A stretch of 64,000 nt of DNA from Butyrivibrio fibrisolvens (GTDB lineage: Bacteria; Bacillota; Clostridia; Lachnospirales; Lachnospiraceae), in NCBI RefSeq assembly GCF_023206215.1, contig NZ_CP065800.1, positions 372,001 through 436,000 of the forward strand. Reading direction: 5' to 3'. Shown in pieces: positions 4,278 to 47,083 of this stretch (its first letter is position 1; the number at the start of each line of letters is the position of its first letter). A program made the translations under genes and the position numbers. The notes below the pieces were generated by a model, which saw nothing but the letters and a program-made list of their open reading frames with translations, was not told where the DNA came from and made no database searches.

Positions 4278-4313
4278 ACGCTTCTCCTATTTCTAAATGA
4301 TGAGATCAAGATT

Positions 4314-4649
4314 CCCACTTGGTCGGAGGCATGTCCGGAAAAATCTCGCCAAGGCAGGCGGAATATAAATCTTTGCCACGTTGTTAATTGTTTTATGAAT
4401 TCTAGGACATATAAATACATCCATGTATTTCTATACATGTCCAGTTACATCCTGTAACATGGCATGATATCTGGAGCTTTTTATTCTGGGGTCCAAACTC
4501 GCTTCGCTCAGACATGTGGACCCCTGGCAGAATAAAAATCTCCATCTATCACGCTCATGAATTTTATAAAACAATTAAAAAACGTGGCAAAGATTTATAT
4601 TCCGCCTGCCTTGGCGAGGTTTTTCCGGACATGCCCCCGGCCAAGTGGG
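4314..4649. repeat. Large palindromic element, copy 1
   Basis: Near-perfect inverted repeat of about 336 bp. The outer arms pair CCCACTTGG (4314) with CCAAGTGGG (ends 4649), continuing through GCATGTCCGG/CCGGACATGC and GCCAAGGCAGGCGGAATATAAAT on the left with its complement on the right. Inside lie ATAAAACAATT-type arms and a central hairpin (GGGGTCCA..TGGACCCC) around CTCGCTTCGCTC. The same core recurs at 39221-39540 and, inverted, at 43741-44015. Compared with copy 2, this copy carries a 56-bp insertion at 4403-4458. No open reading frame or transposase is present. It could be a MITE-like element or a long structured RNA. Confidence 0.85.
4405..4460. repeat. Short double-hairpin repeat inserted in palindrome copy 1
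   Basis: A 38-nt hairpin (GGACAT..ATGTCC, with the inner stem AAATACATCCATGTATTT) is followed by a small hairpin, TTACATCCTGTAA. The 38-nt unit has the same length and loop sequence as units at 21509 and 55003/55061. It interrupts the palindrome between AATTC and ATGGCATGAT, which are adjacent in copy 2. Confidence 0.7.
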
Positions 4650-4669
4650 TAGTTTGAGTTATTGATAAT

Positions 4670-29020: not shown

Positions 29021-29040
29021 ATCCATCCTCCACGCCTTTG

Positions 29041-29114
29041 GACTTCCCACTTGGACAATGCAGTATCACCACAGCAAAACCCGTGGTGATACTGCATCAT
29101 CCAAGTGGGAAGTC
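29041..29114. repeat. Long hairpin with CTTCCCACTTGG ends
   Basis: GACTTCCCACTTGGA and TGCAGTATCACCAC on the left pair with GTGGTGATACTGCA and TCCAAGTGGGAAGTC on the right, interrupted only by a small bulge. There is no T-run. The same CTTCCCAC..GTGGGAAG ends occur at 47038-47083 and similar ones bound the palindrome at 4314. It lies between two small genes of the kinase cluster. Confidence 0.65.
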
Positions 29115-29123
29115 TGCAAATTA

Positions 29124-39220: not shown

Positions 39221-39540
39221 CCTGTTCGGATTTGATGGTTCGCTAGCCTTGAAGTCTTTGCAGGAGTCCGGGAACCCTTGGCAGGCAGAATATAAATTGT
39301 TGCCACGCTGTAATTGTTTTATAAATTCATGGCATGATATCTGGCGCTTTTTTATTCTTGGGGTCCAAACTCGCTTCGCTCACACATGTGGACCCCAGAC
39401 AGAATAAAAACCTCCAGCTATCACGCTCATGAATTTTATAAAACAATTAAAAGCGTGGCAACAATTTATATTCTGCCTGCCAAGGGTTCCCGGACTCCTG
39501 CAAATCCTACAAGACTACCGAACCACCAAATCCGAACGGG
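39221..39540. repeat. Large palindromic element, copy 2
   Basis: About 320 bp. The outer 60-base arms (GTTCGGATTTGATGGTTCG left; CGAACCACCAAATCCGAAC right) are nearly exact complements, continuing through TTTGCAGGAGTCCGGGAACCC and GGCAGGCAGAATATAAAT. The core is shared with copies 1 and 3: TAATTGTTTTATAAATTCATG, GGCATGATATCTGGCGC, and the GGGGTCCA/TGGACCCC hairpin around CTCGCTTCGCTC. This copy lacks the 56-bp insertion of copy 1 and so shows the ancestral core. It sits in the leader of the AAA+ gene. Confidence 0.85.
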
Positions 39541-39761
39541 AATGTAAACATAAGTATGCGAGATGTATTAATTCTTATTATCGCAATATGCTTGTAATTC
39601 GTAAATACATAATACAACATAAATGTATTTTTATACATAGTTTTTATAAAAAGAGACTACAAATGCATTTTAGCACTTGCAGCCTGATAACTTGTTACTT
39701 GGTTTTGGCAGTTCCAAAAACTTTTGGAGATGCTGCACCGCCCAGTCGAAAGTTTGAATTA

Positions 39762-43601: not shown

Positions 43602-43740
43602 TCGTTATTCGCTCCCTTATTATACATTTACTATGATTCATTACTATTATTTCTATTTTTCTTATTTTATCACGAATGCAAAATATTCTTTCAATATATA
43701 CCAGTAACTGCTTATAATAAATTTATCTGATTCTTTTCAA

Positions 43741-44015
43741 GTATCCTCAAAGGATTTGCAGGGGTGGGGCTCCTCCGTGCAGGCAGAATATAAATCATTG
43801 TCTCGCTTTTAATTGTTTTAAAAATTCATGAGCGTGATAGATGGAGATTTTCATTCTGCATGGGGTTCACCTGTTTGAGCGTAGCGAGTTTGAACCCTAG
43901 AATGAAAAGCGCCAGATATCATGCCATGAATTTTATAAAACAATTATAGCGAGGCAATGATTTATATTCTGCCTGCGCGGAGGAGCCCCACCCCTGCAAA
44001 TCCTTTGAGGATGCT
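43741..44015. repeat. Large palindromic element, copy 3 (opposite orientation)
   Basis: About 275 bp. Outer arms pair GTATCCTCAAAGGATTTGCA with GCAAATCCTTTGAGGATGC, continuing through GGGGTGGGGCTCCTCC and CAGGCAGAATATAAAT. The core is the reverse complement of copies 1 and 2: ATGAGCGTGATAG first, then the hairpin around GAGCGTAGCGAG, then CCAGATATCATGCC. The hairpin is the most decayed, yet paired GGGTTCA/TGAACCC remains. It precedes the DUF975-RR-HK operon by about 165 bp. Confidence 0.85.
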
Positions 44016-47006: not shown

Positions 47007-47037
47007 TATTTTCATAGAAATACAATATATTTGCAAA

Positions 47038-47083
47038 CTTCCCACATGATACATGTTTGCCCATCCAGGTATCATGTGGGAAG
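47038..47083. terminator. Hairpin between histidine kinase and ABC transporter genes
   Basis: CTTCCCACATGATAC pairs perfectly with GTATCATGTGGGAAG across a 16-nt loop. It lies between converging genes but lacks a T-run. Its CTTCCCAC/GTGGGAAG ends resemble those at 29041-29114, so it may be a member of a hairpin repeat family as well as a transcript end. Confidence 0.5.

What the first reader, a model, noticed from the sequence alone, without database searches (positions are those of the whole stretch)
4314..4649. Family of large palindromes with a conserved core, three copies in 64 kb
The same ~200-bp core occurs at 4314-4649, 39221-39540 and (inverted) 43741-44015. It has GGCAGGCNGAATATAAAT ends, TAATTGTTTTATAAATTC arms, GATATCTGG and a CTCGCTTCGCTC-capped central hairpin. 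It has no coding capacity, all copies are intergenic, and two of the three lie directly upstream of genes (purF, AAA+). It fits no IS or riboswitch I know. It could be a MITE-like element, a structured RNA or a chromosomal protein-binding site.
Basis: seen in the sequence. Interest (0 to 1): 0.85.

Follow-up and report, generated by a model that had tools for sequence, protein, structure and literature searches.

The report
Mobile long hairpins sharing one cap
The three palindromes are copies of a small gene-less jumping DNA element, present about 120 times in this Butyrivibrio genome, that folds into a very long hairpin whose tip is nearly letter-identical to the tips of long hairpins with unrelated stems in other bacteria, which suggests that something widespread recognises the tip.

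Summary
Confirmed and extended. The three palindromes exist (4306-4657, 39221-39540, inverted 43740-44015). They belong to a family with 127 motif hits in this genome (control 3). Full copies are mostly 288-297-bp hairpins with ends YTCAAACTTCSCACTTG and 8-9-bp target duplications (17 of 58 pairs, 1.7 expected): gene-less, mobile, MITE-like. The inner arms stay 96% complementary within a copy although copies differ by 18-26%, yet certain irregularities are conserved.

The unexpected part is the tip. The cap TGTYTGAGCGNAGCGAGTTT tops long hairpins with unrelated stems in other bacteria: in 80 sampled loci, 73 of 87 caps sit on a self-complementary stem, against 1.6% for arms of different elements; record titles span about seven phyla, three of them only as MAGs. 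It is in 25 of 391 class-level genomes but only 6 viral stretches. In one distant genome such hairpins have other ends (GGGTGCAT), 9-bp duplications (7 of 11) and an ISKra4-family IS with matching ends. Different ends, one cap.

No Rfam family matched and my paper searches found nothing on it.

The parts
4306..4657 (-). Copy 1, full hairpin element with both terminal repeats and a ~55-bp insert in the left arm; strand given is that of the cap
   Evidence: inverted repeat I3; ends TCAAGATTCCCACTTG 4306-4321 and its partner 4642-4657
4495..4514 (-). Cap of copy 1, exact TGTCTGAGCGAAGCGAGTTT
39221..39540 (-). Copy 2, full-length hairpin with degenerate ends
   Evidence: inverted repeat I1; folds
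39367..39386 (-). Cap of copy 2, one mismatch (TGTGTGAGCGAAGCGAGTTT)
43740..44015 (+). Copy 3, inverted, ends degenerate
   Evidence: inverted repeat I2
43872..43891 (+). Cap of copy 3, exact TGTTTGAGCGTAGCGAGTTT
29038..29117 (.). Short palindrome with the same terminal repeats and no cap (internal-deletion derivative or solo-end form)
   Evidence: I4, sequence, ends; same class elsewhere in the genome

Best explanation
A family of small, gene-less mobile elements (MITE-like) whose whole length is one imperfect palindrome of about 290 bp. SHOWN: many copies, almost all intergenic, terminal inverted repeats, 8-9-bp target duplications, one clean empty site in a related species, shorter derivatives with the same ends. 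INFERRED: a DDE-type transposase supplied in trans acts on the ends; in genome G792 the likely donor is an ISKra4-family IS with matching ends, in Butyrivibrio it is unknown or lost. The arms are kept complementary mainly by templated correction of one arm from the other (inferred from double changes, A-T/T-A swaps and few half-way states). SHOWN: some irregularities escape this and are conserved: a bulged base, a tandem mismatch (GA/AG on the cap strand) and above all the cap, an internal loop TGTYTGA/GAGTTT crowned by a mini-hairpin (GC-GNA-GC, or a longer helix in other Butyrivibrio). INFERRED: the cap strand works as a folded hairpin, rather as extruded or lagging-strand DNA than as RNA, and is read by a widespread factor that helps such elements persist or move, which would explain why one cap rides on different stems and different terminal repeats.
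For: 127 hits against 3 in the control; 92 of 94 outside ORFs of 150 aa or more; duplications 17 of 58 against 1.7 expected and, in G792, 7 of 11 perfect 9-mers against 0 of 110; empty site at C1_1054498; IS with same ends and an ISKra4 transposase in G792. Arm identity 96% within against 74-82% between copies, columns 22-47; 12 double changes against 3 single and 4 broken in a shared site; covariation beyond 500 shuffles. Exact cap in 113 of 147 Butyrivibrio elements; apical helix replaced by longer complementary helices; cap on unrelated self-complementary stems, 73 of 87 against 1.6%.
Against: No autonomous partner found in Butyrivibrio. ISKra4 above its cut-off in only 2 of 17 genomes checked. 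41 of 58 pairs show no good duplication, nor do the window's copies. Outer arms (columns 48-91) are only 88% complementary, 77% in subfamily C. Most Butyrivibrio genomes lack the cap: match in 15 of 79; the near-complete G005 has none. DNA against RNA is undecided: an excess of plus-strand A.C over G.T in the inner arms (69 against 32) would fit G.U pairs on a cap-strand RNA, the outer arms show the reverse (123 against 167). No reader of the cap is known.
Confidence: 0.66

Rival explanations
1. Structured RNA: the hairpin works after transcription (3' UTR, terminator, leader or free RNA) and the cap is an RNA internal-loop motif with tandem G.A pairs bound by an RNA-binding protein; mobility is secondary.
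For: Conserved irregularities and strong covariation; many copies within 40 bp of gene ends, 34 of 48 gene 3' ends at the one end; inner-arm mismatch excess that fits G.U on the cap strand; outside Butyrivibrio tandem neighbours read opposite to the cap strand 34 against 14 times, a non-random orientation.
Against: No Rfam match; in Butyrivibrio orientation to tandem genes is balanced, 28 against 28; outside it the mRNA would carry the strand opposite to the cap; double A-T/T-A swaps with few intermediates point to DNA-level correction.
Confidence: 0.25
2. Plain MITE: the cap has no function of its own; it is a relic of one ancestral element that spread by horizontal transfer, and similarity simply reflects descent.
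For: Mobility and horizontal spread fit.
Against: Stems next to the cap are unrelated between elements (left-left match at background, 2.1%) while the cap is fixed and the stems stay self-complementary; the apical helix is replaced by other helices but TGTYTGA/GAGTTT stays. The cap searches asked for the exact motif, so diverged caps were not sampled, which softens this.
Confidence: 0.12
3. Palindrome protection: the cap and the bulges hinder hairpin nucleases such as SbcCD or cruciform extrusion, so that long palindromes survive.
For: The conserved part is at the hairpin tip, where such nucleases act (recalled); about 120 long palindromes are tolerated in one genome.
Against: A steric role would not obviously need a fixed 20-nt sequence; not tested.
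Confidence: 0.15

Closest known systems
MITEs (miniature inverted-repeat transposable elements)
   Same: Short, gene-less, terminal inverted repeats, target duplications, high copy number, partner IS with like ends in G792
   Different: The whole element is one co-evolving hairpin with conserved irregularities, and its tip is shared by elements with other stems and other terminal repeats
REP elements and RAYT transposases (PMC3733652, passages read)
   Same: Repeated intergenic palindromes spread over several phyla
   Different: REPs are 20-40 bp with stems of 5-13 bp and GTAG or CGTC tags; here about 290 bp, other motif, and 8-9-bp duplications. Association with a Y1 transposase was not searched
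ISKra4-family insertion sequences
   Same: In G792 the hairpins and the IS share GGGTGCAT ends, like subterminal letters and a 9-bp duplication
   Different: Hairpins carry no transposase; Butyrivibrio ends differ and ISKra4 has no match in G000 or G001
Integron attC sites (recalled)
   Same: Long imperfect hairpin with bulges kept on one strand; stem sequence free, structure fixed
   Different: No attC core boxes looked for and no integrase search run; insertion with target duplication argues against cassette exchange
Long stem-loop families of single genomes (recalled)
   Same: Repeated stem-loops in one genome
   Different: One invariant tip on unrelated stems in many genomes

Membership tests
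MITE | Terminal inverted repeats shared by many copies | tested here: met
   AACTTCSCACTTGS with up to 1 mismatch: 183 hits, control 4
MITE | Target-site duplication | tested here: met
   17 of 58 at 8-9 of 9 matches against 1.7 expected; G792 7 of 11 against 0 of 110
MITE | No coding capacity | tested here: met
   92 of 94 outside ORFs of 150 aa or more; ORFs over copies in the window are mechanical only
MITE | Autonomous partner with the same ends | tested here: inconclusive
   Met in G792. Not found in Butyrivibrio among 20 lone-end loci nor in nine long-spaced end pairs with ORFs checked; the whole genome was not covered
ISKra4-derived elements (Butyrivibrio copies) | ISKra4 transposase in the genome | tested here: not met
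   No match in G000 or G001
REP/RAYT | 20-40-bp repeat with GTAG or CGTC tag | tested here: not met
   Elements are mostly 288-297 bp with ends YTCAAACTTCSCACTTG
REP/RAYT | Linked Y1 transposase | not tested
   No Y1 family search was run; no recurrent neighbour protein in 110 loci windows
Known Rfam RNA | Score above a family's threshold | tested here: not met
   None over the elements; best sub-threshold E 0.17 to a plant microRNA
Integron attC | Integrase and cassette array | not tested
   No integrase search was run

The most novel reading that the evidence does not exclude
The cap (internal loop TGTYTGA/GAGTTT crowned by a variable mini-hairpin) is a bacteria-wide nucleic-acid module read by an undiscovered, widely conserved factor; gene-less hairpin elements of many phyla carry it whatever their stems and whatever transposase moves them.
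Probability: 0.36. Interest if true: 0.93.

Novelty: new variant of a known kind. Interest (0 to 1): 0.82.

Why it matters
A ~20-nt hairpin tip is conserved nearly letter for letter on long hairpins with unrelated stems in bacteria of about seven phyla (names from record titles, taxonomy recalled; three only as MAGs). Selection seems to read that structure, yet nothing found here names it. It turns into a direct question (what binds the cap, as DNA or as RNA?) and offers a natural system for how bacteria tolerate about a hundred long palindromes. Some draft assemblies stop right at the cap (G1050: 5 of 10 listed caps within 70 bp of a contig start; G581: 4 of 10), so such elements may be undercounted.

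Tried and rejected
Known RNA: no Rfam family. Phage origin: no match in the phage collection; the 20-nt cap in 6 viral stretches; of 36 stretches with the shorter motif 8 fold with 25 or more pairs. GIY-YIG partner (a recalled idea): none near the caps in 80 loci by a home-made regex, a weak test. Recurrent neighbour protein: none convincing. UPF0236 (ISLre2) in Butyrivibrio: none in G000; the weak hit in G001 is an ISL3-family transposase with other ends. Contig-end hits in G008 looked like relatives but are another repeat. Autonomous Butyrivibrio element: 20 lone-end loci show short derivatives or lone ends; of ten end pairs more than 400 bp apart, those examined (L061 and seven others, plus L205/L208) enclose ordinary genes or no long ORF; one short pair (L141) was not examined. 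Literature: cap strings and the peptide FERSEF, palindrome, MITE and ISKra4 terms: nothing on these elements in the listings; the library lacks most subscription journals, and one search found 563 papers of which 30 were listed. The backward-pattern control is unfair because the motif is nearly mirror-symmetric.

Rows dropped: six entries before (one contig-overlap duplicate, two copies of an unrelated segment, three not folding as a central hairpin) and eight without the right-hand motif. In one search, 98 of 101 passed a loose fold test; three have only 56 pairs and are, I infer, copies of one unrelated segment. One search failed by a division error and was rerun. Changes since: distances to start codons (28 and 29 bp), the ISL3 naming, more results against the reading, odds lowered slightly for the missing partner.

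Full report
CHECK OF THE OBSERVATION. The window holds three long inverted repeats, 4306-4657, 39221-39540 and 43740-44015, with arms of 89-100 nt and 88-89% complementarity; the next has 32-nt arms. Copy 2 folds to -212 and -230 kcal/mol on its two strands against shuffles at -80 and -87. The quoted motifs are present. Copies 1 and 2 lie 28 and 29 bp upstream of the start codons of an ORF with glutamine amidotransferase and phosphoribosyltransferase domains (consistent with purF) and of an AAA-domain ORF.

THE FAMILY IN THIS GENOME. The window is G000:C1:372001-436000 of a 4.45-Mb genome. A 17-mer of the core with up to 3 mismatches gives 127 hits on both replicons, control 3. A few are duplicates from overlapping contig ends or unrelated, so I write about 120. 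I fetched 101 places with flanks and studied 94 plus 18 elements of G001; 53 G001 elements were collected later. G001's second contig has the length of plasmid NZ_CP146964.1 of Butyrivibrio fibrisolvens. Full elements are mostly 288-297 bp, end in YTCAAACTTCSCACTTG, and 92 of 94 lie outside ORFs of 150 aa or more. Shorter palindromes share the ends, one of them in the window at 29038-29117.

MOBILITY. The 9-bp flanks of 58 end-paired elements match at 8 or 9 positions in 17 cases, 1.7 expected from shuffled pairs; 41 do not. At C1_1054498 both flanks align in G001 with two bases between them, an empty site. Other sites without the element align less cleanly. At C1_560043 both species carry an element. 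The window's own copies show no clear duplication.

ARMS EVOLVE TOGETHER. In stem columns 22-47 the two arms of one element are 96% identical (as complements), while the same arm compared between copies is 74-82% identical within a subfamily and 66-69% between subfamilies A, B and C; the outer columns 48-91 are looser, 88% within (77% in C) against 66-83% between. In the shared site C1_560043/L182, on the fold of the G000 copy, 12 base pairs changed on both sides, 3 on one side while still pairing, 4 broke; four of the 12 are A-T/T-A swaps. Alignment A1 (40 of 139 candidate elements, thinned for identity and one more left out) has 98.1% paired cells and 23 of 40 pairs with double changes; none of 500 shuffles reaches these values, and sliding the partner by one column gives 42-44%; the structure was derived from the same alignment. 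Symmetric swaps with few half-way states suggest templated correction between the arms rather than slow compensatory change; this is inference. Mismatch types do not settle RNA against DNA: plus-strand A.C and G.T are 16/3 (columns 0-15), 53/29 (22-47) and 123/167 (48-91), and related copies are not independent.

WHAT IS NOT CORRECTED AWAY. On the cap strand (minus in copies 1 and 2) there are a bulged base in GAGC/GCC, a tandem GA/AG mismatch in GATAGATGG/CCAGATATC, a ~4-nt bulge below the tip, and the cap (read). Of 147 Butyrivibrio elements in G000 and G001, 113 have the exact 20-nt cap TGTYTGAGCGNAGCGAGTTT. In G003, G004, G022 and G069 the GC-GNA-GC tip is replaced by a longer helix such as GCCCATTTATGGGC, and in G020, G035, G039 and G049 by other helices, between TGTYTGA and GAGTTT. 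So the apical helix is real and the fixed part is the internal loop TGTYTGA/GAGTTT.

BEYOND BUTYRIVIBRIO. Model R1 gave strong hits in seven of 38 genus genomes, two of them single and weak, and weak hits in five other genera among 397 family genomes; the three of these loci that I read show long palindromes with different stems and nearly the same tip. The motif YTGAGCGNAGCGAGTTT occurs in 25 of 391 class-level genomes, own included, 13 of them with two or more; by my arithmetic about one chance hit is expected in all 391. Of 30 such caps in 29 loci, 28 had at least 45 enclosing pairs (no random control there). The looser cap TGTYTGAGC-N-GCGAGTTT is in 15 of 79 genus genomes (controls 5 hits) and 25 of 398 phylum-level genomes, 13 with two or more (controls 3 hits; about six chance hits expected by arithmetic). 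Of 83 caps with enough flank 71 have at least 25 enclosing pairs within +-75 nt, against 97 of 400 random sites. Eight bases below the cap are at least 7/8 complementary in 73 of 87 caps, against 1.6% when arms of different elements are compared; left arms of different elements match each other in 2.1%. Records whose caps sit on a clear hairpin come from Bacillota, Pseudomonadota, Bacteroidota and Fusobacteriota, and only as MAGs, which can be misbinned, from Desulfobacterota, Gastranaerophilales and Magasanikbacteria (phylum assignment recalled). Some listed records, such as the Nitrospirales MAG, showed no hairpin. The viral collection holds 6 stretches with the same 20-mer. No neighbour gene recurs convincingly.

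A MOBILISER IN ONE LINEAGE. G792 (another family of the class) has 43 matches to one hairpin arm, 40 of 233 candidates scored, up to 100% identical. Its hairpins end in GGGTGCAT; 7 of 11 have a perfect 9-bp duplication, 0 of 110 mismatched controls reach 8. The same genome has a ~1.64-kb IS with GGGTGCAT at both ends, the duplication AAAAACATC and an end that goes on like the hairpin's (GTGAAGAA), read. Its 455-aa protein is an ISKra4-family transposase (300.7 bits, cut-off 205). ISKra4 passes its cut-off in 2 of 17 genomes checked, and has no match in G000 and G001; the Butyrivibrio ends are different. One cap thus rides on different terminal repeats.

POSITION. In Butyrivibrio the end that is left on the anti-cap strand hugs genes: 34 of 48 gene 3' ends and 25 of 46 gene 5' ends within 40 bp, against 21 of 48 and 2 of 46 at the other end; orientation to tandem genes is balanced, 28 against 28 (ORF starts taken mechanically). 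Among 82 caps of other genomes 4 lie inside ORFs over 250 aa; of 80 with neighbours on both sides, tandem neighbours read opposite to the cap strand in 34 and along it in 14.

READING. Most likely these are MITE-like elements moved in trans by a DDE-type transposase and carrying a folded module whose tip is under selection in many bacteria. Membership in the MITE kind is met on ends, duplication, copy number and lack of genes; the autonomous partner was found only in G792. That the cap is read by a widespread factor, and as DNA rather than RNA, is inference. The resemblance of GC-GNA-GC to unusually stable DNA mini-hairpins is recalled, not tested. The paper searches named above found no description; one paper (PMC3733652) was seen in passages only.

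Noticed in passing
window 29038-29117: Short 80-bp palindrome with the same terminal repeats but no cap; such short forms occur elsewhere in the genome.
   Followed up: partly
window 47033-47048 and 39742-39757: Further single matches to the terminal repeat (2 and 3 mismatches), possibly remnants of other copies.
   Followed up: no
G000 C1:2207087/2207676, 2262507/2263118, 1106731/1107320, 2860883/2861494 and others: Elements often come as inverted pairs about 480-610 bp apart; meaning unknown.
   Followed up: no
L061 and L139 (G000 C1 near 7.7 kb and 4112.5 kb): The same element with the same flanks lies near both ends of contig 1, so the contig probably overlaps itself at its ends.
   Followed up: no
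window 4397-4455 and L184 near 5548: The same ~55-bp insert sits at the same place of the left arm in copy 1 and in a G001 element, as if a second small hairpin module were nested there.
   Followed up: no
L394 809-828 and 1018-1037: Two nearly identical capped hairpins in direct tandem, 209 bp apart, in a Clostridiales MAG.
   Followed up: no
L504 853-2205 (G001, four copies): ISL3-family insertion sequence with ends GGCTCTT, near-identical in four places.
   Followed up: partly
G008 contig starts (L172-L178): Another repeat, with CATG-rich spaced units, ends many contigs of this draft.
   Followed up: no
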